The translations under genes and the position numbers were made by a program. 35,454 nucleotides of DNA from an uncultured Desulfovibrio sp. (GTDB lineage: Bacteria > Desulfobacterota > Desulfovibrionia > Desulfovibrionales > Desulfovibrionaceae): positions 1-35,454 of the forward strand of contig CASEWR010000122.1 in NCBI GenBank assembly GCA_949291675.1, given 5' to 3'. The notes below the pieces were generated by a model. The model was not told the DNA's origin. It ran no database searches and was given only the letters and a program-made list of their open reading frames with translations. This document shows positions 3,277-35,363 of the stretch, piece after piece. Within the stretch, counting starts at the first letter, position 1; each line of letters opens with the position of its first letter.

Positions 3277-4557
3277 ATGGCAACAAAGACAAAGAAGCCT
3301 GCAGCCACCAAAAGTGGCGCAGCAAAGAAAAAGACCACTGCAAAGGCCGCTGCCCCCGCAAAGGCCCTTGAAGTGAAGGAACAGACTCCTCCCGCAGTGG
3401 CAGAAGAAGCACAGGCACCTGCAGTGGCTGAACCTGCTGCTGTGCCTGCACCTGCAGCAGCGAAGAAGGCTCCTGCCAAAAAGGCTGCAGCAAAGAAGGA
3501 AGCACCTGCCAAGGCTGCTGAAGCACCGGCTGAGGCTGCACAGGCAGCTCCTGCCGAAGCCGCCGAAACACCTGCCGAGGAGCCCGCCAAGGCTGCTGAA
3601 GCACCCGCTGAGGCTGCACCGGCAGCTCCTGCCGAGGCCGCCAGGGCTGCCAGGCCTGAGCCCAGGATTCGTCTTGTGCCCAACTCTGACGGCTCCAAGC
3701 TCACGGAAATCGTGGCCAGGCCCGTCAATGCCGGCAACCCCTACAAGCCCATGGAAGCCACGGTTCTTGAAGTCATCACGGAATCTCCGAACATCAAGAC
3801 CATCCGCGTTACCCTGGACGACCCGGAAGTTGCCAGAAACTTCACCTACGAGCCCGGCCAGGTAGGTCAGCTCTCCGTCTTCGGCGCAGGCGAGTCCACC
3901 TTCGTCATCAACTCCCCGCCGTCCCAGAAGGACTATCTGCAGTTCTCCGTCATGCAGGCCGGCGAGGTGACCACGGTCATCCATAACCTCTGCAAGGGCG
4001 ACAAGGTCGGTGTGAGAGCTCCTCTCGGCCGTCCCTTCCCCTATCAGCTGTGGAAGGGCAAAAAGCTCTTCTTCATCGGCGGCGGTATCGGTATGGCCCC
4101 CATCAGGACCATCATGCTGCACTGCCTTGAGCACAGCAGCGAATACGAGAAGATCAGCCTGCTCTACGGCTGCAGAACCCCTGATCTCATGCCCTACAAG
4201 TATGAGCTCGAAGACTGGCTGAATCGTCCTGACCTCGACTGCACACTGACCATCGACATCGAGTCCGAAGGCTGGCCGTATGAAGTAGGTATGATTCCCA
4301 ACGTCCTGCGCAAGCTCAATCCCAGCCCCGACAACTGCATAGCCATCCTCTGCGGCCCGCCGGTCATGATCAAGTTCACCCTCATGGCACTTGATGAGCT
4401 CGGTTTTGCCCATGAGAATGTGTACACCACGCTGGAAAAGCGCATGAAGTGCGGTATCGGCATCTGCGGTCGCTGCGGCATTGGCGGCAAGTACGTCTGC
4501 CTTGACGGCCCTGTGTTCTCTCAGAAGGAACTGGACGAACTGCCGCCGGAACTCTAG
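3277..4557 (+). CDS. FAD/NAD(H)-binding oxidoreductase subunit (FloxA/AsrB/PyrK-like) with long Ala-Pro-Lys N-terminal extension
   Basis: A 426-residue flavoprotein. From about residue 155 it follows the ferredoxin-NADP reductase / dihydroorotate dehydrogenase electron-transfer subunit plan: an FAD-binding barrel, a nucleotide-binding motif FFIGGGIGMAPIRT, YGCRTPDLMPYK, and a C-terminal cysteine motif CGIGICGRCGIGGKYVC that probably holds a [2Fe-2S] cluster. Residues 1 to about 130 are unrelated to catalysis: a Lys-rich start followed by Ala/Pro/Glu/Lys-rich low-complexity sequence, including a 26-residue internal repeat (78 bp, near 3508 and 3586). Enzymes of this family are usually 260-290 residues, so the extension accounts for the extra length. 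The gene starts three bases after the previous stop. It is likely the NAD(H) entry or exit point of the complex. The extension's role is unknown. Confidence 0.82.
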   Translation: MATKTKKPAATKSGAAKKKTTAKAAAPAKALEVKEQTPPAVAEEAQAPAVAEPAAVPAPAAAKKAPAKKAAAKKEAPAKAAEAPAEAAQAAPAEAAETPAEEPAKAAEAPAEAAPAAPAEAARAARPEPRIRLVPNSDGSKLTEIVARPVNAGNPYKPMEATVLEVITESPNIKTIRVTLDDPEVARNFTYEPGQVGQLSVFGAGESTFVINSPPSQKDYLQFSVMQAGEVTTVIHNLCKGDKVGVRAPLGRPFPYQLWKGKKLFFIGGGIGMAPIRTIMLHCLEHSSEYEKISLLYGCRTPDLMPYKYELEDWLNRPDLDCTLTIDIESEGWPYEVGMIPNVLRKLNPSPDNCIAILCGPPVMIKFTLMALDELGFAHENVYTTLEKRMKCGIGICGRCGIGGKYVCLDGPVFSQKELDELPPEL

Positions 4558-9289: not shown

Positions 9290-10435
9290 ATGCTCTTCTA
9301 TATCCACGTTCCCTTCTGCCGCGCACGCTGCGCCTACTGTTCCTTCTACTCCCTGGCTACAGGCCACAGGGCTCTGCCCGAAGGCTATGTGCCGGGCCTT
9401 CTGCGCGACATAGCCTGGCTTGGCAAACGCCATGGCAATGACACGGCAGGCCCTGTCACCAGTATCTTCTTTGGCGGTGGTACGCCGAGCCTGCTGGAGC
9501 CGGGAGATATGGAGTGCATCCTTGCCGGTATAGCCCGGGCCTTTCCCGTGGCAGAACAGTGCGAAATCACCATGGAGGCCAACCCTGAGAGCCTGCAGGA
9601 CAGAACACGCGTCCAGGGCTTTCGTGCAGCCGGCATCAATCGCCTGTCCATGGGCGTACAGACCATGACCGATGATGGCTTGAAAACGCTGGGGCGTATT
9701 CACACAGTCTCCCAGGCCCTGCAGGCTGCCGACAATGTTCATGCCGCAGGCTTTGCTTCCTTTGGTCTGGATCTCATGTGGGGCCTGCCGGGGCAGAGCT
9801 GCGGAGACTGGTGTCAGGTGCTGGAGAATGCCTGTTCCCTTGCGCCACACCATATCTCAGCCTACAGCCTCACAGTGGAAGAAGGGACGCGTCTTGCTGA
9901 GGCCGTGGAGAAAGGACGCCTTGTCCTGCCTGATGAGGATGAGCTTGCCCGCATGTTTCTGGAGGGTCATGCCTCTTTGGCTGCACACGGCTTTGAGCAC
10001 TACGAAATTTCCAATTTCGCAAGATCGGGACATCGCTGCCGCCATAATCTCGGCTACTGGCAGGGAGAAGACTACCTGGGCGCAGGTCCTGGAGCAGTAT
10101 CGACCTGGCAACATGTGCGCATCTCAGAGCCCTGTGACCTGAAGCTCTGGCTCGACACGGAGCCGGAAGAACGTCCCAGAGAAAGGGAAGAACTGGACGT
10201 GGCAACAGTGCGTGAAGAGCGCATCATGCTCTCCCTGCGCACTGCGCGCGGTCTGGACGTGACTGCTGCTGATATGGACCAGGGTGAGAGCTTTCTTGCA
10301 CAGCATAGAGCCTACATCGAGGCACTGTTGCGTGCAGGCCTGGCCCGCATTGACGAGGAAGACGGCAGGACCTTCTTTGCCCTCACCCCGGAGGGCATGC
10401 TCGCCTCAAACGAAATTGTGGCCAGATTCTTTTAA
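9290..10435 (+). CDS. hemW: HemW-like radical SAM protein (heme chaperone family)
   Basis: A 381-residue radical SAM enzyme of the HemW/HemN-like family. The [4Fe-4S]/SAM motif is at the very N-terminus: YIHVPFCRARCAYCSFYS (CxxxCxYC). It is followed by FFGGGTPSLLEP, EANPES, INRLSMGVQT, GLDLMWGLPGQ and HYEISNFARSG, all characteristic of the family. HemW binds heme and helps insert it into proteins; it is often misannotated as oxygen-independent coproporphyrinogen oxidase, and it lacks the extra cysteine (CxxxCxxCxC) of true HemN. ATG 9290 puts the motif at the normal position. The last 50 codons are the first copy of a 222-bp triplicated unit that continues past the stop, so the 3' end of this gene founded a repeat. 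Confidence 0.92.
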   Translation: MLFYIHVPFCRARCAYCSFYSLATGHRALPEGYVPGLLRDIAWLGKRHGNDTAGPVTSIFFGGGTPSLLEPGDMECILAGIARAFPVAEQCEITMEANPESLQDRTRVQGFRAAGINRLSMGVQTMTDDGLKTLGRIHTVSQALQAADNVHAAGFASFGLDLMWGLPGQSCGDWCQVLENACSLAPHHISAYSLTVEEGTRLAEAVEKGRLVLPDEDELARMFLEGHASLAAHGFEHYEISNFARSGHRCRHNLGYWQGEDYLGAGPGAVSTWQHVRISEPCDLKLWLDTEPEERPREREELDVATVREERIMLSLRTARGLDVTAADMDQGESFLAQHRAYIEALLRAGLARIDEEDGRTFFALTPEGMLASNEIVARFF

Positions 10436-10480
10436 GCTGCTTTGATCTCAAAGTGTCCGGGACAACGAGCCGGTTCGGAT

Positions 10481-10496
10481 TGTTTCACGTGAAACA
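10481..10496. promoter_or_regulatory. parS site 1 (perfect)
   Basis: TGTTTCACGTGAAACA, a perfect 16-bp palindrome identical to the classical chromosomal parS site bound by ParB. It lies 45 bases after the hemW stop, in copy 1 of the 222-bp repeat. Confidence 0.92.
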
Positions 10497-10518
10497 CTAA
10501 GCGTGAAAACGCCTTCTG

Positions 10519-10676
10519 GGTGCAGCACGGTGCCTCTATCTCTGCCCTGCTGCGTGCAGGCCTGGCCCATATTGCCAGGGTAGACGGCAGGACCTTCTTC
10601 GCCCTCACCCCGGAGGGCATACTCGCCTCAAACGGGATTGTGGCCAGATTCCTCCAAGCTGCTTCAGCCTCAGCAA
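10519..10676 (+). pseudogene. hemW 3'-end fragment, copy 2
   Basis: Translation still reads ALLRAGLAHIARVDGRTFF and ALTPEGILASNGIVARF, matching the HemW C-terminus (ALLRAGLARIDEEDGRTFF), but there is no start or N-terminal part, and the stop is lost. It is a duplication remnant inside the 222-bp repeat, not a gene. Confidence 0.8.
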
Positions 10677-10702
10677 GACCGGGACAACGTGCCGGTTCGG
10701 AC

Positions 10703-10718
10703 TGTTTCACGTGAAACA
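10703..10718. promoter_or_regulatory. parS site 2 (perfect)
   Basis: Perfect 16-bp parS palindrome in copy 2 of the 222-bp repeat, with the same right flank (CTGAGCGTGAAAACG) as site 3. Confidence 0.92.
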
Positions 10719-10740
10719 CTGAGCGTGAAAACGCCTGCCG

Positions 10741-10895
10741 GGTACAGCACAGTCCCTCTGTCTCAGCTTTGTTGCGTGCAGGCCTTGCCCATATTGCCAG
10801 GGAAGACGGAGGACCTTCTTCGCCCTTACCCCGGATGGCATGCTTGCCTCAAACATGGTTGTGGCCAGATTCTTCCAAGCTGCTTAAGCCTTAGC
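10741..10895 (+). pseudogene. hemW 3'-end fragment, copy 3
   Basis: Third copy of the HemW C-terminal coding segment. A one-base deletion near 10809 shifts the frame, and it has more substitutions than copy 2, so it is older or less constrained. It is non-coding. Confidence 0.75.
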
Positions 10896-10923
10896 AAGGC
10901 CAAAACAACGTGCCGGTCCGGAA

Positions 10924-10939
10924 TGTTTCACGTGAAACA
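10924..10939. promoter_or_regulatory. parS site 3 (perfect)
   Basis: Perfect 16-bp parS palindrome at the end of copy 3 of the 222-bp repeat, about 25 bases before the probable end of the IS200 element. Confidence 0.92.
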
Positions 10940-10963
10940 CTGAGCGTGAAAACGTCTGACTGT

Positions 10964-11605
10964 ACAGAGCTGGGATTCAAAAAAGTTCCTTGTGGTTCTG
11001 TCTGCACGCGCAGGGCATGTCTGCTCATCGAAAAACATCGTCTTCTGCATCCTGGCTCTCAACATAGTTCTGTATGTCCTCCTCAGTAACAGTGCCAGTA
11101 CTGCAGCAGAGATATCCGTCTGCCCACATGATCTGCCCAACATAGTATTTTCTCAAAGCTTTGAATTCATGGAACAGTAAAGAGGACGTTCTCTCCTTGA
11201 ACTGTTGCATCAACTCACTGACCGACAGAACCGGAGGGATTGAGACCAGCATATGGACATGATCAGGAGACACTGTTCCCTGCAAAATCTCGACACGGTT
11301 CTTTTCACACAGCATGCGCAGTATATCTCTGCATCGGACAGCAATATCTCCTCTCAGCACCTTTTTGCGGCACTTTGTCGTCCATGCCAAATGCAATTGC
11401 GCGGAAATGACAGTGTGTGATCCTTTTCGATATGTGCTCATGACAACAGCTTAGCACAAGACCGCTGAAGTCTCCACAGAAAGAAGATTTCAGAAAACGG
11501 CTCCAGGGAGTATTTCTGAGCAGAAAAAGACGCTGCTGTCTGCACGGCAGGGGATACAGTCATATTCACAACTGCCCTCACCCCAGCTATGACGGAGAGG
11601 CAGTT
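10964..11605 (-). mobile_element. IS200/IS605-type insertion element (tnpA only; ends approximate)
   Basis: The transposase gene is flanked by two imperfect hairpins, as expected for this family, which has no inverted terminal repeats. ACAGAGC at 10964 pairs with GTTCTGT ending 11001; AACTGCC at 11570 pairs with GGCAGTT ending 11605. Exact cleavage sites cannot be fixed from sequence alone. The element interrupts the parS region between sites 3 and 4. No tnpB is present. Confidence 0.6.
11025..11441 (-). CDS. tnpA: IS200/IS605 family transposase TnpA (Y1 HUH)
   Basis: A 138-residue single-strand transposase. The metal-binding HUH motif is DHVHMLVSIPP near residue 60, and the catalytic tyrosine is in EEDIQNYVESQ near the C-terminus. 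The N-terminal part HTVISAQLHLAWTTKCRKKVL and the middle FKERTSSLLF are typical. The length is normal (130-155 residues) and no frameshift is visible, so it could be active. Enzymes of this family excise and insert single-stranded DNA, often using the lagging-strand template, and recognise subterminal hairpins; such hairpins are seen on both sides. ATG 11441 is the start. Confidence 0.92.
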   Translation of the reverse strand: MSTYRKGSHTVISAQLHLAWTTKCRKKVLRGDIAVRCRDILRMLCEKNRVEILQGTVSPDHVHMLVSIPPVLSVSELMQQFKERTSSLLFHEFKALRKYYVGQIMWADGYLCCSTGTVTEEDIQNYVESQDAEDDVFR

Positions 11606-11865
11606 GTCGCGAGTTTTTGTTTCACGTGAAACACCTCCCACTGCCCGGACACAACAGGCAAACGAAAACGCCCATGCCCACAGACTGAGGCGCTGTATTT
11701 CAGCCCTCATGGCGTGGGAGTGAGGAGCGTGTGGGCTAGAGTATACCGGAGCATCCAGTTCGGAATCCAGAGACAAACGTGCACGAGGGCCCGTGTAGTG
11801 TGCGCAGGTACAGCCCATCCATGATGTCTTTCAATGCTGTATAGTCAGTGGTGAACAGACAGAGA
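11606..11865. other. Intergenic stretch with parS site 4
   Basis: Between the IS200 end and the Sel1-repeat gene. Apart from parS site 4 I see no gene, terminator or recognisable repeat. Open frames here are short, overlap on both strands, and have no ribosome binding site. Confidence 0.5.
11618..11633. promoter_or_regulatory. parS site 4 (perfect)
   Basis: Perfect 16-bp parS palindrome, 13 bases beyond the IS200 hairpin. Its flanks differ from both repeat families, so it is a solitary copy. Confidence 0.9.
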
Positions 11866-13503
11866 CTATTCCCAGGGAAAGAGCCCGAACTTTCGCATGT
11901 GCCCACCCCAGATGCGGTCATAGTGCGAATCAAAACTACGGGGGCTGTTGTAGAGTTCATAGAGTTCTCTGATCCCCTTTGGCACTGAGAGGAGTCCGCC
12001 CTTTCCTGCCAGATACAACCAGCCGCGCCTGTACTTCGCTTCCGCAGCAAAGCGTGCCTTTTCATACCATGCCAGTGCCTGCTCATAGTTCTGCTCGACG
12101 CCGATTCCGAACTCATAGAGCGTGCCGACCATATAGGGAAACTCCCATTTGCGAACTGCCTTTGCCAGCATCTCCTTTCCCTTTTCAAAATTCTGTTCGA
12201 CGCCATCGCCCTTGAAATACATCATGGCAATCTCAATTCTGGCCTTTCTGCTGTCTTTCCTGGAACGTTCAGCAATCTTCTCCAGCCAGAGAACTGCCTG
12301 TTCTTCATCCCTGGACAGGCCGTACTGACCTTTCCGAAAGAAAGAGCTCAGGTCATAGTAGCCCTGGAATTCTCCCAGAGCAGCAGCTCTGTCATAGTAC
12401 GCGATTGCCTTGTCCAGATCCCTGATCCGCTCATCCTTGAGATAGAGTTCCCCAAGTCTGAGCATAGATTCCGTATCGTTCAGCGTACAGCCCTTTTCAT
12501 ACCAGAAGACGGCCCTGTCTATGTCATTTCGTCCCGGGCTCAGCCAGAGTTCGCCAAGCAGCCTGATGCCGGTGAGGTCATTGTGTGCTGCTGCCTTTTC
12601 ATACCAGGAGATGCCCAGCCGCTGGACCACATCTTCAGGTCCGAGCTCCCCGGAAAAAAAGATGTGCCCCAGGAAGATCATGGCCATGGTATTGTTCAGA
12701 TCGGCAGCCTTCGTAAACCACTTCACTGCCTCCAGCGCATCCCTGTCCACAAAGTATTCTCCTGTATAGAAGGCTATGGCCAGGTGGAGGATTGCCCTCA
12801 CATCGTTGTGTTCGGCAGCCTGAAGGTAGAGGGTGCGTATCTGCGTGCGAATCGCCGGGTCTTTACTGCGACTGTTAAGCTTTGCGGCCAGCCTGCGCAT
12901 GGCAACGCTATTACCAAGTGCTGCGGCCTTTCTGTAGCACTCGCGCACCTTTTCATTGATATGCTGGCCAGCATACTTCCTGTCGTACAGATCCCCCAGG
13001 GCAAGCATTGCCCAGGAATTATTCCTGGCTGCTGACTTCTCAATCCAGGCAAGCCCCTCCTCCAGAGATTTCGGAGCGCCCCCTTCCCCCCGGACATAAA
13101 GGAGCCCTACTGCAAGCTGGGCATCTGCATCGCCGCGCTCTGCTTCCTTTTTCAGACTGGGGAAGTTCGGATTCTTGATTACAAATCCCCGATCCTTATC
13201 AAGAGTCATTCTGGCAATCATCATGTCCACCTTCAGATAGGGACCCGCCTTTGCGACAGGCACTACTGCTCCCAGACTGTCAGCTTCTTTTGCCTGCACA
13301 CAGTCCGACTGAAGGGCAATCATCCACAGACAGCAGCAGATAAGAACAGCTGCACGCAGCTGTGCTGGAAAATAAGCAGATACTCTGTGCACGTCTGTCT
13401 GCACAATCTCTTGCACTAATCGTCCCTGTCCGGAAAAGGACGCATCTGTTCTGTCAAAAGCGTTCACGGGTCTGCTCCTGAACACCATACAGTCCGTCTT
13501 CAT
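11866..13503 (-). CDS. Sel1-like repeat (SLR) protein, probably exported
   Basis: A protein built of about ten Sel1-like repeats, the TPR-like 36-residue helical pairs used for protein-protein contacts. Repeats such as AQLAVGLLYVRGEGG, AVKWFTKAADLNNTMAMIFLG, AVFWYEKGCTLNDTESMLRLG and AIAYYDRAAALGEFQGYYDLS run from about codon 90 to the end. A hydrophobic segment (AAVLICCCLWMIAL) ending near CVQA precedes the repeats and looks like a signal peptide or membrane anchor. The start is uncertain: the frame is open up to 13680, but that reads through parS site 5. ATG 13503 is given here, and GTG 13404 or 13392 would place the signal peptide closer to the N-terminus. No strong ribosome binding site decides it. 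The gene sits inside the parS region with parS on both sides. Partner and role are unknown. Confidence 0.75.
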   Translation of the reverse strand: MKTDCMVFRSRPVNAFDRTDASFSGQGRLVQEIVQTDVHRVSAYFPAQLRAAVLICCCLWMIALQSDCVQAKEADSLGAVVPVAKAGPYLKVDMMIARMTLDKDRGFVIKNPNFPSLKKEAERGDADAQLAVGLLYVRGEGGAPKSLEEGLAWIEKSAARNNSWAMLALGDLYDRKYAGQHINEKVRECYRKAAALGNSVAMRRLAAKLNSRSKDPAIRTQIRTLYLQAAEHNDVRAILHLAIAFYTGEYFVDRDALEAVKWFTKAADLNNTMAMIFLGHIFFSGELGPEDVVQRLGISWYEKAAAHNDLTGIRLLGELWLSPGRNDIDRAVFWYEKGCTLNDTESMLRLGELYLKDERIRDLDKAIAYYDRAAALGEFQGYYDLSSFFRKGQYGLSRDEEQAVLWLEKIAERSRKDSRKARIEIAMMYFKGDGVEQNFEKGKEMLAKAVRKWEFPYMVGTLYEFGIGVEQNYEQALAWYEKARFAAEAKYRRGWLYLAGKGGLLSVPKGIRELYELYNSPRSFDSHYDRIWGGHMRKFGLFPWE

Positions 13504-13881
13504 GGCACTGCTGCTCTGCCTTAATGCGCAGCACGTCGCCCTGTTTTGCATTTTGTTGTACCACGCTCCGTGCAGAAAGAACAGTACAGTGACTAGCCGG
13601 AACACATTCACTGTCCCTGCCTGTGTTGTTTCACGTGAAACAAGAGACGTCCACGCATGATATTCGTCCTGCACAGGCAAATGGGATGCTCGTGAAGGCC
13701 TGCTTTTCTCCTGGACAGCAGAACTGCCTTGTCATGAGAGGCCTCTGTCCTTTTGAGGGAAAAAGAGCAGACGCATATCCCATGTCTCTTTCCAAAGTGC
13801 CTGCTCTGGCGTAGAGGCAGAGGCACTGTCCGGGAAGGTCGCCGGCAGGTCAGACTCTCATTCCACTTTTTCGAGGCGCAT
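13504..13881. other. Divergent intergenic region with parS site 5
   Basis: Holds the leaders of the Sel1-repeat gene (leftward) and the MFS gene (rightward), and parS site 5. No clear sigma-70 promoter pair was found. ParB bound at this site could affect both genes, which is inference. Confidence 0.5.
13626..13641. promoter_or_regulatory. parS site 5 (perfect)
   Basis: Perfect 16-bp parS palindrome between the divergent Sel1-repeat and MFS genes. In the longest reading of the Sel1 frame it would encode VSRET, which argues that the real start is further downstream. Confidence 0.9.
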
Positions 13882-15027
13882 ATGCAGCACTGCGTTCCGC
13901 ACATTCTCCGGGCTCTCAGATTCTGCTTCTTCTTTCTCGGTGCAGGCTACAGTTTACTCATGTCGCGTATGCCGGCACTCAGCGCCCAGTGCAATGCAGA
14001 TGAAGCTGCCATTGGTGTTGCCGTGCTCTGCCTTGGTGCCGGCAGCCTGCTGGGCTTTGTCCTTGTCCCTGTTCTGCAGAATCGTTTTCAGACCAGGACG
14101 ATCTTCAGGACAGGAACCATACTGATGCTCTGCACACTGCCCCTGTGCGGTCTTGCAGACAGCGTGCTCTTTCTCTGGGTATCCTTTGTCATTGGCGGTT
14201 TTTTCTATGCCATCTCGGAAGTCTGTGCCAATGTCCAGGGCATTCTCTTTGAAATACGCTCTCGCAGAAACTGCCTTTCGAGCATGTACGCCTCCTACAG
14301 CTGCGGCTGTCTTGCAGGCTCTCTCTATGCTGCCATATGTGCCTTCCTCGGACTGACGCCTTTTGTTACCTTCTGCTCAGCAGCACTACTCCTTTTCGCC
14401 GGACGTGTCGTTGCAGTCCGCTATCTTCTCAAGGACAGCAGGCCGAAGACCGAAAACACAGGCACCTCCTCCCAAACAGGTATCCCGGGCATCACCATCT
14501 TGTGTGGTTTTCTGGCCATGTGTGCCTACACAGTATCAGGGGCAAGCGCAGAATGGAGCGCCCTGCTGCTTAACACTGTCAAAGGCGCTGATGAGGGCAC
14601 ATCTGCCCTGGCCTTTGGCTGCTTTGCCATTTCTCTTGCCATTGGTCGTGCTTTCGGAGACGGGCTGCGGCTGCGCTACGGGGATTTCAGAACGCTGTTT
14701 TGCGGCTGCATGCTTTCACTTGCGGGACAGGCCTGCTTCCTTCTCTCTCCGTACCCCATTGTCTGTCTTGCAGGCTACGCGATTGCCGGCTTCGGCTTTT
14801 CCCCGGCAATTCCTATCCTGATGAGCAGAGGTGCCAAGAGAAAGGACATCACCCCACAGAAGGCAACAGCCATCATCTCAACCCTGGGGAATACAGGCGT
14901 GCTGATCATCCCCCCGGCCATTGGCTGGCTGGCAGGCCATTTCGGCCTCACCCAGGCTCTTCTGCTGCCGGTTGTACTGACACTCATCGTCATGTCCAGC
15001 TCGCTGATCTTCAGAAAGCCTGCCTGA
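13882..15027 (+). CDS. MFS transporter (FucP/YbjJ-like)
   Basis: A 381-residue integral membrane protein with about 12 hydrophobic segments, starting at ATG 13882 with GAGG six bases upstream. The longer frame from 13753 adds an Arg-rich, non-membrane stretch and is not preferred. The N-terminal half has GAGYSLLMSRMPALSAQCNADEAAIGVAVLCLG-like MFS features, with the central loop around KDSRPKTENTGTSSQ. The second half has SGASAEWSALLLN, a motif seen in the YbjJ/FucP-type subgroup, and GRAFGDGLRLRYG, the usual basic loop motif. The substrate cannot be predicted. It lies alone between parS site 5 and the long repeat array and may have been acquired with the Sel1-repeat gene. Confidence 0.85.
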   Translation: MQHCVPHILRALRFCFFFLGAGYSLLMSRMPALSAQCNADEAAIGVAVLCLGAGSLLGFVLVPVLQNRFQTRTIFRTGTILMLCTLPLCGLADSVLFLWVSFVIGGFFYAISEVCANVQGILFEIRSRRNCLSSMYASYSCGCLAGSLYAAICAFLGLTPFVTFCSAALLLFAGRVVAVRYLLKDSRPKTENTGTSSQTGIPGITILCGFLAMCAYTVSGASAEWSALLLNTVKGADEGTSALAFGCFAISLAIGRAFGDGLRLRYGDFRTLFCGCMLSLAGQACFLLSPYPIVCLAGYAIAGFGFSPAIPILMSRGAKRKDITPQKATAIISTLGNTGVLIIPPAIGWLAGHFGLTQALLLPVVLTLIVMSSSLIFRKPA

Positions 15028-15342
15028 CCCACTCAAAGCCCGCCTTTGCGGATCGGCAAAACAGGAGTCATGCTCAGACTTTCCCTCCCACGCTGCTCTT
15101 CCTGTTCTCTGCCGGCGGTACAAAGACATGAGAGCATCTGAACAGCATACAGCTCGTCTGTGTCTGTATCTCGCTCCTGAGTGTGAGTATTGCCACTGAT
15201 CCGGCCTCGTTCTTCAGTCGCTTCAGCTGCAAGACCTGCGAGCTGACAAGCTGGGGTAAGCAGATACCTGCTGCCACAGAGTACTCCCAACCTCTGCGCT
15301 ACGTCTCAGTGCCATTTAAAACCTCCTGCTGTGTCCTGACAC
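15028..15342. other. Intergenic stretch left of the repeat array
   Basis: No gene, RNA or terminator could be supported. Open frames are short and unrelated to known proteins. It leads directly into parS site 6 and the long array. Confidence 0.4.
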
Positions 15343-15358
15343 TGTTTCACGTGAAACA
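15343..15358. promoter_or_regulatory. parS site 6 (perfect)
   Basis: Perfect 16-bp parS palindrome opening array unit 1. Confidence 0.92.
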
Positions 15359-15661
15359 TCCCCGCACCTCCAGGGCAATGTCTGACCGAATTGTGCCTTT
15401 ACGGAAACGGCATTGCCAGTGGCTCCCCTTGTATCCGCATCTTTGTTGCTAAAGCTCTGATGCTCTACTCTCTGTCTGACTATCAGAGCACGTGCCGATC
15501 AATGTCCTTGCGGGTGCGTTGACCGGCTTTTCTTTTCAACGTGCTGACACATAGAGCAGGAGGTCTGGAGGAGCTCCTCCCCGTCTGGCGTCAAAGGCAG
15601 ACTTCATCGTACTACTTGCACAGCAGACATCCTGCTCTCTGTCACTGTCAGACACAGAAGT

Positions 15662-15921
15662 CTGCTCCCATGTACACGTTGCACGACACCCCAGGACCTC
15701 TCCCCTTCGTCCAACGCAGACGACGGAGCACCGCCACACGTTGTGTTTGTACAGGCGTGCTGCCCTCTCTGTCTCTATCAGACACGGAAGCCTGCTCCCT
15801 GGTGCGTGTTCGTCACATTCTGAAGCCTCGGCAGACTTCAGACGCATATGGCAAAACGCTGTCCACGTACACGTTGTACGACACATCCTGGGGCACAGTC
15901 TTGCGTCAGACGCATACAACG
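15662..15921. repeat. 126-bp sub-repeats, unit 1
   Basis: CTGCTCC landmarks at 15662 and 15792 (130 bases apart) begin diverged copies of the 126-bp sub-repeat that contains CGACAC, CCAGGACCTCT and CCCTTCGTCCAACGCAGACG. The second copy is only partly conserved. Confidence 0.6.
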
Positions 15922-16001
15922 AAGAAGCAATGACTCTCGTCACAGTACTACGGCAAATGTTGGGACTGCGTCAGTGTCCTGCGTCTCAACTGGCCCTCAA
16001 A

Positions 16002-16017
16002 TGTTTCACGTGAAACA
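16002..16017. promoter_or_regulatory. parS site 7 (perfect)
   Basis: Perfect 16-bp parS palindrome opening array unit 2, 659 bases after site 6. Confidence 0.92.
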
Positions 16018-16294
16018 TCCTGTCACTCCCTGGGCAATGTTTGACTGTATTGCGCCTTTGCGGAAACGATATTGCCAGTGGCTCCCCTTGTATTCGCATC
16101 TCCACGGCTAGAGCTCTGCTCAGTACTCCCCTTCTGGCTATCAGAGAACGTGCCGGTCAATGTCCTTGCGGGTGCGTTGACAGACTTTTCTCAACGTGCA
16201 GACACACAGGGCAGCAGGTCTGGAGGACCATTACGCTGTCTGGCGTCAAAGGCGGACGCAGCTCCCATTGTGCTACTTGTACGGACACACGAGT

Positions 16295-16672
16295 CTGCTC
16301 TCATGTACACGTTCCACGACACACCAGGACCTCTACCCTTCGTCCGACGCAGACGGGGGAGCACAGCCACGCGTTGCGTTTGCACAGGCATCATGCCCTC
16401 GTCTGTGTCAAACAAGATGTCTGCTCCCATGTACAAGTTGCACGACACACCAGGGCATCTACCCTTCGTCCAGCGCGGACGGCGGAGCACCGCCATACGT
16501 TGCGTTTGTACTGGCATCATGCCCTCGTCTGTGTCAAACAAGATGTCTGCTCCCATGTACAAGTTGCGCGACACACCAGGTCTTCTCCCCTTCGTCCAGC
16601 GCAGACGACGGAGCACCGCCCCGCGTTGCGTTTGTACTGGCATCCTGCTCCTTGTTTCTGTGGGACAGAGAC
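16295..16672. repeat. 126-bp sub-repeats, unit 2 (three copies)
   Basis: CTGCTC landmarks at 16295, 16421 and 16547 give an exact 126-bp period. The second and third copies are nearly identical (GTCTGTGTCAAACAAGATGT before the landmarks at 16421 and 16547), so this is the most recent local expansion in the array. Confidence 0.85.
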
Positions 16673-16752
16673 GACAAAACGCTGCCCCATACCCGTTGTA
16701 CGGCACTTCCTGGGGGCAGCGTCAGTGTCCGGCGTCTCCGCAGGCACCTGAA

Positions 16753-16768
16753 TGTTTCACGTGAAACA
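16753..16768. promoter_or_regulatory. parS site 8 (perfect)
   Basis: Perfect 16-bp parS palindrome opening array unit 3, 751 bases after site 7. Confidence 0.92.
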
Positions 16769-17048
16769 TCCTCGCACTCCCTGGACAATGTTTGACCGTT
16801 TTGTACCTTGCGGAAACGGCATTGCCAGTGACTCCTCTTGTATTCGCATCTCCACCGCTAGAGCTCTGCTCTGTACTCCCCTTCTGGCTATCAGAGAACG
16901 TGCCGGTCAATATCCTTGCTGAGCATTGACCAGCTTTTCCATTTTCAAAGTGCAGACACACAGGACAGGAGGTCTGGAGGACCATTTCCCCATCTGGCTG
17001 CAAAAGCAGACGCAGACCACAATGTGCTACTTGTACGGACACAGGAGT

Positions 17049-17301
17049 CTGCTCTCATGTACACGTTGCACGACACACCAGGACCTCTACCCTTCGTCCA
17101 ACGCAGACGACGGAGCACTGTCACTCGTTGTATTTGTACAGGCATCCTGTCCTCGTCTGTGTCAAACAAGGTGCCTGCTCCCATGTACGAATTGCACGAC
17201 ACACCAGGACCTCTACCCTTCGTCCAACGCAGACGGCGGAACACTGCCACACGTTGCGTTTGTACTGGCATCCTGCTCTCGTCCCTGTCAGGCACAGAAG
17301 T
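17049..17301. repeat. 126-bp sub-repeats, unit 3 (two copies)
   Basis: Landmarks at 17049, 17175 and 17302 (126 and 127 bases apart) delimit two copies. They share CACACCAGGACCTCTACCC and CCTTCGTCCAACGCAGACG. Confidence 0.8.
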
Positions 17302-17514
17302 CTGCACCCTGTAAGGCGTGTTCGTCACATTCTGAAGCCTCGACTGACATCAGACGCATATGACAAAACGCTGTCCGCGTACCCGTTGTACGACACATCC
17401 TGGGGCACAGTCTTGCGTCAGACGCATACAACGAAGAAGCAGTGACCCTCGTTACAGTACTACGGCAAATTTCGGGGGCAGCATCAGTGTCCGGCGTCTC
17501 TACTGGCCCCAGAG

Positions 17515-17530
17515 TGTTTCACGTGAAACA
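17515..17530. promoter_or_regulatory. parS site 9 (perfect)
   Basis: Perfect 16-bp parS palindrome opening array unit 4, 762 bases after site 8. Confidence 0.92.
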
Positions 17531-17724
17531 TCCCCGCACTCCCTGGACAATGTTTGACCGTTTTGTGCCTTGGGGAAACGGCATTGCCAGTGACTCCCCT
17601 CGTTTTCATAGCTCCGTTGCTTTCACAGTGCACACACAGGACAGGAGATCTGGAGGAACACTTCCTCGTCTGGCGGCAAAAGCAGACGCAGACCACAACG
17701 TGCTACTTGTACGGACACAGGAGT

Positions 17725-17978
17725 CTGCTCTCATGTACACGTTGCACGACACACCAGGACCTCTCCCCTTCGTCCAACGCAGACGACGGAGCACCGCCAC
17801 TCGTTGCATTTGCACAGGCATCCTGCCCTCGTCTGTGTCAGACACAGGAGGCTGCTCTCATGTACACGTTGTACGACACCCCAGGAACTCTCCCCGATGT
17901 CATACGCAGACGACGGAGCACCGCCACTCGTTGCAGTTGCACAGGCATCCCGCTCCCTGTCTCAGTCGGACAGAGACG
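17725..17978. repeat. 126-bp sub-repeats, unit 4 (two copies)
   Basis: Landmarks at 17725 and 17852 (127 bases apart) begin two copies. The second is more diverged, especially around 17890. Confidence 0.75.
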
Positions 17979-18055
17979 GCAAAACGCAGCCACGTACCCG
18001 TTGTACGGCACTTCCCGGAGCAGCGTCAGTATCCATTGTCTCTACAGCTCCAGAA

Positions 18056-18071
18056 TGTTCCACGTGAAACA
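18056..18071. promoter_or_regulatory. parS site 10 (one change)
   Basis: TGTTCCACGTGAAACA: one base differs from the other sites, at the position that is variable in the published parS consensus (TGTTNCACGTGAAACA). It closes array unit 4. Confidence 0.85.
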
Positions 18072-18198
18072 TTCGCACGTGTCCGTCCTGCGCTGTCCTG
18101 AAGCACACTGGCTTCCATCCTGACACCAGTGTCTGACTGCAGACGGTACATTTATCAGCTACTCCGGGAACATTTCTTATTTCGTGACAACAGTCTCA

Positions 18199-18214
18199 TG
18201 TTTCACGTGAAACA
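18199..18214. promoter_or_regulatory. parS site 11 (perfect)
   Basis: Perfect 16-bp parS palindrome beyond the array, with unrelated flanks. The rest of 18072-18365 shows no gene or other feature I can support. Confidence 0.9.
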
Positions 18215-18365
18215 CTCACACTGCTGCTGCGTCCATCCTTTTGGGCGGTGCGGAAAGCCGGCACTGCACAGAGATTGGCGCAGCATGGAGCGATCCCTGC
18301 CCTGCTCTTTTCCCCTGGGAGTAATGACACTCCCCCTGGCCATCCCATGCAGGGCGCGCACAGAA

Positions 18366-18403
18366 ACAAAAAAGCCCCGGAAGATGCCTATCCCTCCAGG
18401 GCT
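18366..18403 (-). terminator. Rho-independent terminator of the class II aldolase gene
   Basis: On the minus strand AGCCCTGGA (18403-18395) pairs with TCCGGGGCT (18381-18373), with one C-A mismatch, and is followed by a run of six T with one G then three more T. It lies 67 bases after the aldolase stop, so the transcript runs across parS site 12. Confidence 0.85.
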
Positions 18404-18431
18404 GATGAAATTCTCTGTTGTCGTCCGGGAC

Positions 18432-18447
18432 TGTTTCACGTGAAACA
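18432..18447. promoter_or_regulatory. parS site 12 (perfect), within a transcribed 3' region
   Basis: Perfect 16-bp parS palindrome located between the aldolase stop (18470) and its terminator (18403), so it is copied into the mRNA 3' end. It is the rightmost of the twelve sites. Confidence 0.9.
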
Positions 18448-18469: not shown

Positions 18470-19138
18470 TCAGCTTAAGAAAAACAGCTGCGTCTGAGCA
18501 AGGTGTTCGTACTGCTCACACACGCCCAGAGCCTCGATGGCCGTCCTGCCCACCGTACACAGGCCATGCTGGCTCATAAAGACAGCCTTGATGGCCGGGT
18601 CTGCAAAGCCCTGTGCCGTTGTCTCTGCGAGATCCATGGTTCCCGGTGCACAGGCCTTTGTCATGACCAGACTTGCCCGCCATGCCTCGGACTCAAAGAG
18701 TGGCATGCGCAAATAGTCCTGCTCTGAGACGCGCAGGGACAGGGCCAGCATGGCTGCAGGATGCACATGGAGCACACAGCTGATATCCGGGCGCTTCTTG
18801 TAGATGGCCACATGCATGGCAGTCTCACTGGAGAGCTTCGGGCCGCGGATGCAGACACCTTCTGCATCAGACAGGGCAATGTCACCGAGCTGCAGATGGC
18901 CCTTGGCCACACAGGTTCCGGTGACAAGCAGGACATAGCCGGTGGGCGTGTCTGCCGCAAGACGCATGCTCATATTCCCGTTGAAGCCACGCATAAACCC
19001 GCTCTGCCAGGCATCGCGACAGGCAGCCTGCATATCTGCCAGCGCACAGCCACAGGCCTTCTTGTCTGCACCAAGCTGTGCAAACTCCCTGTGCTTCATA
19101 TCAATGGCATCAAGCCATTCCCTGAATACCTGTTTCAT
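18470..19138 (-). CDS. Class II aldolase/adducin family protein
   Basis: A 222-residue zinc-dependent aldolase-fold protein of the fuculose-1-phosphate aldolase / ribulose-5-phosphate 4-epimerase family. Seen motifs are GFNGNMSMR (phosphate binding), TGTCVAKGHL, GPKLSSETAMHVAIYKKRPD (SSE loop with the conserved glutamate), CVLHVHPAAM (two zinc-ligand histidines) and SQHGLCTVG (third histidine). All residues expected for an active enzyme are present. Its substrate cannot be fixed: fuculose-phosphate, methylthioribulose-phosphate and other sugar phosphates are all possible. It starts 12 bases after the thiL stop, so it is probably co-transcribed with thiL. A proper terminator follows it, with parS site 12 in between. 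Confidence 0.87.
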   Translation of the reverse strand: MKQVFREWLDAIDMKHREFAQLGADKKACGCALADMQAACRDAWQSGFMRGFNGNMSMRLAADTPTGYVLLVTGTCVAKGHLQLGDIALSDAEGVCIRGPKLSSETAMHVAIYKKRPDISCVLHVHPAAMLALSLRVSEQDYLRMPLFESEAWRASLVMTKACAPGTMDLAETTAQGFADPAIKAVFMSQHGLCTVGRTAIEALGVCEQYEHLAQTQLFFLS

Positions 19139-35127: not shown

Positions 35128-35240
35128 CAGGTCTGTCCGGCTGTTTCCGGGCCTGCTGTCCCCTGCTCTGCTTCCCTCGCTGCCCGCAGACTCCCGGCCT
35201 GCCCGGCTGCCAGCTCAAGCGCTGCGTCTGCCCTGCACAG

Positions 35241-35307
35241 GGCGCCAGCAGAACTTCAGCAGGGCGCCAGCCGGACTTCAGCAGGATTTCGGCAGGACTT
35301 CGGCAGG
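35241..35307. repeat. Short tandem repeats before the probable mreD
   Basis: A 22-bp unit starting GGCGCCAG (35241 and 35263) runs into three 11-bp copies of ACTTCRGCAGG (35275-35307, one with ATTTC). It lies in the 236-base gap between mreC and the next gene, which otherwise shows no feature. Confidence 0.65.
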
Positions 35308-35363
35308 GCATGCGCAGGACTTTTTCCCGGCACGAGCGTCACACGCAGCAACACGGAGGCCCC

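What the first reader, a model, noticed from the sequence alone, without database searches (positions are those of the whole stretch)
10481..18447. Twelve parS centromere sites packed into 8 kb
The 16-bp palindrome TGTTTCACGTGAAACA occurs eleven times perfectly, plus once with the single change allowed by the known consensus, at 10481, 10703, 10924, 11618, 13626, 15343, 16002, 16753, 17515, 18056, 18199 and 18432. I found no other copy in the remaining 27 kb. In well-studied chromosomes parS sites are usually spread over tens to hundreds of kilobases around the origin, so this density is unusual and more like a plasmid or point centromere. Seen: the sites. Known: ParB binds this sequence, spreads, and loads SMC. 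Inferred: this is the main chromosomal centromere and lies near oriC, although parA, parB and dnaA are not in the window.
Basis: partly seen in the sequence, partly recalled or inferred. Interest (0 to 1): 0.93.

Follow-up and report, generated by a model that had tools for sequence, protein, structure and literature searches.

The report
Bacterial centromere built from satellite-like repeats
This bacterium packs 22 of its 27 copies of the chromosome-segregation signal parS into two compact repeat arrays, which likely grew by repeated local duplication around older single sites and would show how a bacterial centromere expands.

Summary
In detail: twelve parS-consensus palindromes (eleven perfect, one with a single change) lie at 10481-18447; site 5 is at 13627, not 13626. 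The genome has 27 sites with at most one mismatch. Ten form a second, denser array on the parAB contig, so the window array is neither unique nor clearly "the main" centromere.

New here is how the arrays are built. Sites 1-3 sit in 222-bp tandem copies of the 3' end of hemW. Sites 6-10 head ~540-760-bp higher-order units with 1-3 copies of a 126-bp monomer. Array B is made of decayed copies of a methyltransferase 3' end. In five repeat families from three genomes, flanks have decayed to 50-70% identity while parS stays at 97.5-100%. In orthologous gaps relatives carry 1-2 sites (B) and 4-8 (A), against 10 and 12 here. I infer local duplication seeded on existing parS, then selection on the 16-mer.

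Synteny suggests an origin-region location. "Loads SMC" is not supported: no canonical Smc was found in 14 of 14 genomes. Dense parS clusters are known (Myxococcus, 22 in 3 kb), so this is a new variant of a known kind. ParB binding is untested.

The parts
9290..10435 (+). hemW; its 3' end is the source of the 222-bp repeat units
   Evidence: TIGR00539 over cut-off; copies of residues ~321-381 downstream
10325..10958 (+). 222-bp tandem repeat, 2.9 copies: 3' end of hemW plus one parS per unit
   Evidence: TRF 86% match; the repeat finder; tblastn of HemW
10481..10496 (+). parS 1 (perfect), 45 bp after the hemW stop; a parS lies just after hemW in An276 and G188 too
10703..10718 (+). parS 2 (perfect)
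10924..10939 (+). parS 3 (perfect)
11025..11441 (-). IS200/IS605-family Y1 transposase gene inside the array (bystander in my reading)
   Evidence: PF01797; NF033573 over cut-off, REP-associated model below cut-off
11618..11633 (+). parS 4 (perfect), in unrepeated DNA apart from a 34-bp match to the right block that includes the parS
11866..13680 (-). Sel1-repeat protein gene; its longest open frame overlaps parS 5
   Evidence: PF08238; ORF
13627..13642 (+). parS 5 (perfect)
13753..15027 (+). MFS transporter gene
   Evidence: PF07690
15343..18078 (+). higher-order repeat block: parS spacings of 659, 751, 762, 541 bp, with 1, 3, 2, 2 copies of a 126-bp monomer between successive parS; matches only this contig in the own genome
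   Evidence: no codon periodicity in the differences
15343..15358 (+). parS 6 (perfect)
15660..15775 (+). 126-bp monomer, only copy of the first unit
16002..16017 (+). parS 7 (perfect)
16293..16661 (+). three 126-bp monomers of the second unit
16753..16768 (+). parS 8 (perfect)
17047..17290 (+). two 126-bp monomers of the third unit
17515..17530 (+). parS 9 (perfect)
17723..17949 (+). two 126-bp monomers of the fourth unit (the last matched over 98 bp)
18056..18071 (+). parS 10 (one change, TGTTCCACGTGAAACA)
18199..18214 (+). parS 11 (perfect)
18432..18447 (+). parS 12 (perfect), 22 bp from the end of the convergent aldolase gene
18470..19138 (-). class II aldolase gene, convergent with hemW; right border of the locus, also in An276 and G188
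   Evidence: PF00596

Best explanation
The window array (12 matches to the parS consensus in 8 kb) and its twin on the parAB contig (10 in 3.8 kb) are likely ParB-loading centromere arrays that grew by repeated tandem duplication of local DNA around pre-existing single parS sites and are kept by selection on the 16-bp site. Shown: each repeat unit carries a parS; the units are copies of the neighbouring gene's 3' end (hemW; a methyltransferase) or of local DNA with a 126-bp monomer; flanks decayed while parS did not; orthologous gaps in the relatives examined hold fewer sites. Inferred: the chromosomal ParB binds each site, loads as a CTP-dependent sliding clamp, and the many entry points raise the amount of DNA-bound ParB that ParA pulls on near the origin. 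Because no canonical Smc was found in this lineage, the arrays would act through ParA-driven partition and ParB condensation rather than through Smc loading.
For: Sites. Genome-wide: 27 sites at up to 1 mismatch, 24 exact; 22 of 27 in the two arrays. parA-parB with one parS immediately upstream of parA at C200:27516; ParB over the TIGR00180 cut-off; residues equivalent to Caulobacter R173 and G201, which PMC7383237 calls absolutely conserved in ParB orthologs, are R210 and G238. Duplication: 222-bp hemW units; higher-order block; array B carries methyltransferase C-terminal copies, 5 of the 6 translated with 2-3 stops each. Constraint: parS mean pairwise identity 1.000, 0.975, 1.000, 1.000, 1.000 against flanks 0.696, 0.501, 0.573, 0.666, 0.689 in window-left, window-right, array B, G056, G175; 0 of 1074 flank windows of 16 columns is as conserved. 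Control for having picked units by their parS: profiles of the flanks alone find a parS beside 27 of 27 upstream-flank hits and 26 of 31 downstream-flank hits; the 5 others are hemW itself, three displaced pieces ~120 bp past a parS in array B, and one weak reverse-strand hit in G056. Orthology: gap A holds 4 sites (An276), 8 (G188), 12 (here); gap B holds 1 in 96 bp (An276), 2 (G146, G165), 10 in 3.9 kb (here). Recurrence with unrelated flanks on the parAB contigs of G056 (another genus) and G175.
Against: No binding or segregation data exist. In C. glutamicum one parS gives wild-type-like growth and segregation (passages), and in P. aeruginosa one suffices (title of PMC4368675), so a benefit of 12 is not established. 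Four of the 12 window sites (11618, 13627, 18199, 18432) are not in recognisable repeats, and the 8 sites of G188 at the same gap show no self-match, so very old decayed copies or another route must explain those. Most relatives have 0-2 exact sites: 114 of 119 in the family sample.
Confidence: 0.72

Rival explanations
1. Passive expansion: the repeats grew by replication slippage or unequal recombination with no benefit, and parS was simply carried along.
For: Tandem units derived from arbitrary neighbouring sequence (hemW, methyltransferase) are what mutation alone makes. One site suffices in other bacteria. That every repeat family found here contains parS is no evidence against it, since I searched by parS.
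Against: A passenger would decay with its flanks; instead the 16-mer is the most conserved stretch in all five repeat families, and flank-only profiles find hardly any unit that lost it.
Confidence: 0.12
2. The array is an Smc (condensin) loading platform.
For: ParB-parS recruits Smc in several bacteria (passages of PMC7333895).
Against: No match over the TIGR02168 cut-off in the own genome (98.6% complete) or in 13 of 13 relatives including 4 one-contig genomes, while 10 of 14 control genomes score over it. The best own match is a JetC (Wadjet) protein.
Confidence: 0.06
3. A mobilised palindrome: the IS200-type Y1 transposase inside the array spreads a REP-like palindrome that happens to equal parS.
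For: A Y1 transposase gene lies at 11025-11441 between sites 3 and 4.
Against: It scores as IS200/IS605 and below cut-off for the REP-associated model. Units are 220-760-bp tandem copies including gene ends, not short inserted palindromes. Sites lie in two arrays plus five single places rather than scattering widely.
Confidence: 0.03
4. An integrated plasmid or mobile element brought its own centromere.
For: High density; lower GC (51-57%) than the flanks; the Sel1 and MFS genes are not found in the two orthologous gaps fetched.
Against: Borders hemW and aldolase, and parS near both borders, are shared with An276 and G188. One PF02195 ParB in the genome. The left repeat unit is hemW's own 3' end. 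The sites equal the parS next to chromosomal parA.
Confidence: 0.03

Closest known systems
Myxococcus xanthus parS cluster (22 sites in 3 kb, ~4 kb upstream of parA; PMC3899335 passages; 24 sites in PMC3778016 passages)
   Same: Very dense chromosomal parS cluster near parAB and the origin; ParB binds it in vitro.
   Different: Denser (about 7 per kb) and one main cluster. The passages I saw do not describe gene-derived or higher-order repeat units; I did not examine its sequence. Here there are two arrays with unrelated repeat families.
Chromosomal parS clusters of Caulobacter (five strongest sites in 5 kb; passages) and Corynebacterium glutamicum (ten in 35 kb; passages)
   Same: Origin-region parS cluster with ParA/ParB; in Caulobacter clustering is proposed to raise local DNA-bound ParB because spreading is short.
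   Different: Fewer sites per kb. Satellite-like repeats are not mentioned in the passages read. C. glutamicum uses Smc at parS; that Caulobacter does too is recalled.
Eukaryotic satellite centromeres (higher-order alpha-satellite with a conserved CENP-B box; recalled, no call)
   Same: Diverged tandem monomers arranged in higher-order units with a conserved protein-binding box.
   Different: Tiny scale (3 kb), canonical bacterial ParB site, no homology. Analogy only.
Listeria innocua and Streptomyces coelicolor (20-23 parS; PMC7333895 section 13)
   Same: Similar total number of sites near the origin.
   Different: Described in that section only as near the origin, not as compact repeat arrays; not examined here.

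Membership tests
Chromosomal ParABS centromere (parS) | 16-bp palindrome matching the parS consensus | tested here: met
   11 of 12 perfect, 1 with one change
Chromosomal ParABS centromere (parS) | cognate parA-parB on the chromosome | tested here: met
   ParB and ParA at C200, one parS just upstream of parA
Chromosomal ParABS centromere (parS) | ParB residues that specify parS rather than NBS (R173, G201 in Caulobacter) | tested here: met
   R210 and G238 by alignment; an offset of 10 between the paper's numbering and the crystal chain was worked out from the GKSR motif
Chromosomal ParABS centromere (parS) | location near the replication origin | tested here: inconclusive
   Own genome is in 245 contigs. 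Genes of five of six parS contigs match within 1.96-2.22 Mb of G123, where GC skew changes sign; C131 gave no match there, and only 1.84-2.24 Mb of G123 was searched
Chromosomal ParABS centromere (parS) | ParB occupancy in vivo | not testable with these tools
   needs ChIP-seq
ParB-dependent Smc loading site | a canonical Smc in the genome | tested here: not met
   0 over cut-off in own genome and 0 of 13 relatives; a divergent condensin is not excluded
Plasmid centromere | own partition genes nearby, plasmid context | tested here: not met
   single PF02195 ParB in genome, on another contig; neighbours hemW, hemD, pepA, aldolase conserved in An276
REP/BIME palindromes moved by a REP-associated transposase | REP-associated Y1 transposase over cut-off | tested here: not met
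   NF047646 33.3 bits against cut-off 80; IS200 model met
Satellite DNA (in the structural sense) | diverged tandem units with higher-order organisation | tested here: met

The most novel reading that the evidence does not exclude
A bacterial satellite centromere: in bacteria without canonical Smc, selection for more ParB entry sites repeatedly turns a single parS, together with whatever gene end lies beside it, into a tandem and even higher-order satellite, so that unrelated repeat DNA is built around the same 16-bp box at several loci and in several lineages, as eukaryotic centromeric satellites are built around their binding boxes.
Probability: 0.4. Interest if true: 0.86.

Novelty: new variant of a known kind. 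Interest (0 to 1): 0.68.

Why it matters
[quoted passage not shown] section 13 of PMC7333895, read whole). Here likely intermediate stages sit side by side in orthologous gaps (1, 2, 10 sites; 4, 8, 12 sites), and the duplicated gene ends reveal the mutational step. It points to a clade, with a named genome (Desulfovibrio sp. An276), in which centromere growth and its benefit without Smc could be tested. In the paper searches (listings, plus passages of the papers cited) I saw no description of parS spread by tandem duplication; most subscription papers are not held.

Tried and rejected
Plasmid/mobile origin, REP-like mobilisation, Smc loading and neutral expansion are weighed under rivals. 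Coding function of the right-hand block: differences between repeat copies show no codon periodicity (16/11/11, 3/3/5, 2/3/2, 9/3/9 by position), and the one long overlapping frame tested in array B (428 aa) has no Pfam match. A dispersed genomic repeat: the 813-bp right-block query matches only C122, 7 places. Extended-palindrome idea: bases -1/+1 are complementary in 8 of 27 own sites, 5 of 8 in An276, 12 of 15 in G146/G165 and 9 of 9 in G188, so no fixed extension here. Extra half-sites: the 23 TGTTTCAC in array A are all accounted for by the 12 sites (two each from 11, one from the variant); none elsewhere in the window. The tRNA and Rfam scans of the window gave nothing. The genome-contig scan with ParB named one close relative of five loci. 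Searches for a Desulfovibrio ParB or condensin paper gave nothing on point in the listings. No structure prediction, no large protein search and no DNA-similarity search of phages, plasmids or E. coli was run.
Full report
OBSERVATION. The twelve sites are there: eleven perfect, one with a single change, all within 10481-18447, none elsewhere in the window at up to three mismatches; expectation by chance 0.04. The stretch is poorer in G+C (51-57%) than most of its surroundings.

THE WHOLE GENOME. The assembly has 245 contigs and is 98.6% complete. It holds 24 exact sites and 3 with one mismatch; the reversed control pattern gives 3 matches at up to two mismatches and 0 exact. Besides the window (contig C122, 12) they are on C40 (6), C200 (6), C131, C220 and C195 (1 each). 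The C200 and C40 clusters join: the end of C200 and the reverse complement of the end of C40 overlap perfectly over 141 bases, giving ten exact sites in 3.8 kb ('array B') with spacings of 213-518 bp, plus the one-mismatch site 2.66 kb further. Because contigs break there, ten may be an undercount. C200 also carries parA and parB, with a single parS just upstream of parA; array B begins about 9 kb beyond that site. So the window is one of two arrays, and B is the one beside parAB.

ANATOMY. In the window, sites 1-3 lie in 222-bp tandem units (2.9 copies, 86% match), copies of the last ~60 codons of hemW plus downstream DNA with the parS. Sites 6-10 lie in a 2.7-kb block of higher-order units: parS, a leader of ~200-320 bp, then 1, 3, 2 and 2 copies of a 126-bp monomer. 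In the own genome the block matches only this contig and it shows no coding signature. Sites 4, 5, 11 and 12 are outside these repeats. In array B the units contain decayed pieces of the C-terminal ~110 codons of the methyltransferase gene at its border; of six pieces translated, five have 2-3 stops and one none. Both arrays lie between convergent border genes (hemW/aldolase; methyltransferase/GGDEF), though gap A also holds the Sel1, MFS and IS200 genes.

CONSTRAINT. Aligning units within each family, parS is 97.5-100% identical between copies while flanks are 50-70%; 0 of 1074 flank windows of 16 columns reach the parS value. Families and rows: window-left 3 and window-right 5 (8 of the 12 window sites; 4 dropped as unrepeated), array B 9 of 10 (the last has a different flank), G056 6 of its 9 exact sites, G175 3 of its 6. 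Units are anchored on parS, which favours alignment near it, and they were picked by having a parS. I therefore searched with profiles of the flanks alone: a parS lies beside 27 of 27 upstream-flank hits and 26 of 31 downstream-flank hits. The five others are hemW's own 3' end, three displaced pieces about 120 bp past a parS in array B, and one weak reverse-strand hit in G056. No clear unit has lost its parS. Selection on the 16-mer is the simplest reading.

ORTHOLOGOUS LOCI. In An276 the hemW-aldolase gap holds four sites (one with a mismatch), the first just after hemW and the last just before the aldolase end. In G188 the same gap holds eight exact sites. Here it holds twelve. A gene of ~1650-1750 residues lies in that gap in An276 and G188; the An276 copy has DEAD and UvrD helicase domains. 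It is absent here, where Sel1, MFS and IS200 genes lie instead. At locus B, An276 has a 96-bp gap with one site (one mismatch). G146 and G165 have two sites (one with a mismatch) whose surroundings, parS included, match each other at 78% over 63-64 bp. This genome has ten in 3.9 kb. The HemW tree joins this genome with An276 and G188 (100/99) and then with G146/G165 (97/94); the ParB tree, without G188, agrees more weakly (89/97 for An276). Many other forks are unresolved. G146 and G165 have no parS on their hemW contigs at up to two (G146) or one (G165) mismatch.

RECURRENCE. G056 (another genus) has 217-218-bp parS units, on the parAB contig and at the end of a second contig not linked to it. 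G175 (a different branch) has ~1.4-1.7-kb units on its parAB contig. Their flanks do not match the window's or array B's. Across 119 family genomes 114 have 0-2 exact sites; this genome has 24, the next 9, then 4, 4, 4. Across the 79 genomes of the genus held, 22 have an exact match; this genome has 24, then 9, 7, 6, 6, 6. Many genus members instead carry one- or two-mismatch forms (56 of 61 match at up to two, where the reversed control also gives 0-5), so exact counts understate them.

POSITION. In the one-contig relative G123 the GC skew (40 stretches of 20 kb) turns from negative to positive between about 1.90 and 1.98 Mb, with one stretch out of order; ParB is at 1.994 Mb, a weak DnaA match at 1.973 Mb, hemW at 2.165 Mb. 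Genes of C200, C40, C195, C122 and C220 match within 1.96-2.22 Mb of that genome (C220 by one locus); C131 does not; only 1.84-2.24 Mb was searched. hemW lies ~0.12-0.22 Mb from parB in the four one-contig relatives compared (one distance rests on a rounded genome size). So arrays A and B are probably both in the origin region, apart from each other.

MACHINERY. The ParB has the N-terminal, HTH and C-terminal Pfam domains, matches solved ParB, Spo0J and Noc structures by sequence, and carries R and G at the two positions that PMC7383237 (passages) calls absolutely conserved in ParB. Its best NCBIfam score is to the nucleoid occlusion model, but below that model's cut-off (214 against 315). A canonical Smc is missing: nothing over the TIGR02168 cut-off in this genome or in 13 relatives, four of them single contigs, while 10 of 14 control genomes pass. 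The best own match is a JetC (Wadjet) protein. ScpAB, MukBEF and MksB were not searched.

MECHANISM. Shown: structure, constraint, orthology. Inferred: duplication is seeded on a parS with whatever lies next to it; new copies are kept because each is a ParB entry point; the rest of the unit drifts. PMC5815017 (passages) proposes that clustering raises DNA-bound ParB where spreading is short, and that new sites are tolerated only near old ones; the arrays fit both. Without Smc, the gain would be in ParA-driven partition and ParB condensation. This last step is untested.

NOVELTY. A dense cluster as such is known: 22 sites in 3 kb in M. xanthus (PMC3899335 passages). What I did not see described is the repeat construction and its stages. 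I call it a new variant of a known kind.

Noticed in passing
own genome and G133, G188, G146, G165, G147, G175, G123, G040, G171, G138, G102, G154, G056: No canonical Smc over the TIGR02168 cut-off in any of 14 genomes, four of them single contigs: this branch of the family may lack the standard condensin.
   Followed up: partly
G000:C147, L188:499-4155: A 1218-residue open frame whose best match is the JetC1 (Wadjet anti-plasmid) model, so a Wadjet system may be present; its other genes were not looked for.
   Followed up: partly
G000:C218, C171; G123, G138, G040, G171; G146; G165: Two Bac_DnaA matches in 8 of 12 genomes; in the four one-contig ones a lower-scoring match lies 17-21 kb from parB; none at E 0.001 in G146 and G165. 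The initiator near parB may be diverging in this clade.
   Followed up: no
L060:8304-13571 and L181:9065-13999: A ~1650-1750-residue protein between parS sites in An276 and G188, with DEAD-box and UvrD helicase domains in the An276 copy, absent from the window's gap.
   Followed up: no
window 3419-3638 and 35238-35322: Short tandem repeats (units of 11-78 bp) overlapping long open frames.
   Followed up: no
G123:C1:1996107 and 1996131; G160:C5:106011 and 106039; G102:C4:155021 and 155540: Some genus members carry paired variant palindromes (TGTTTCACGGGAAACA near parB in G123; GGTTTCACGTGAAACC; CGTTTCACGTGAAACG), which suggests drift of the parS form within the genus.
   Followed up: no
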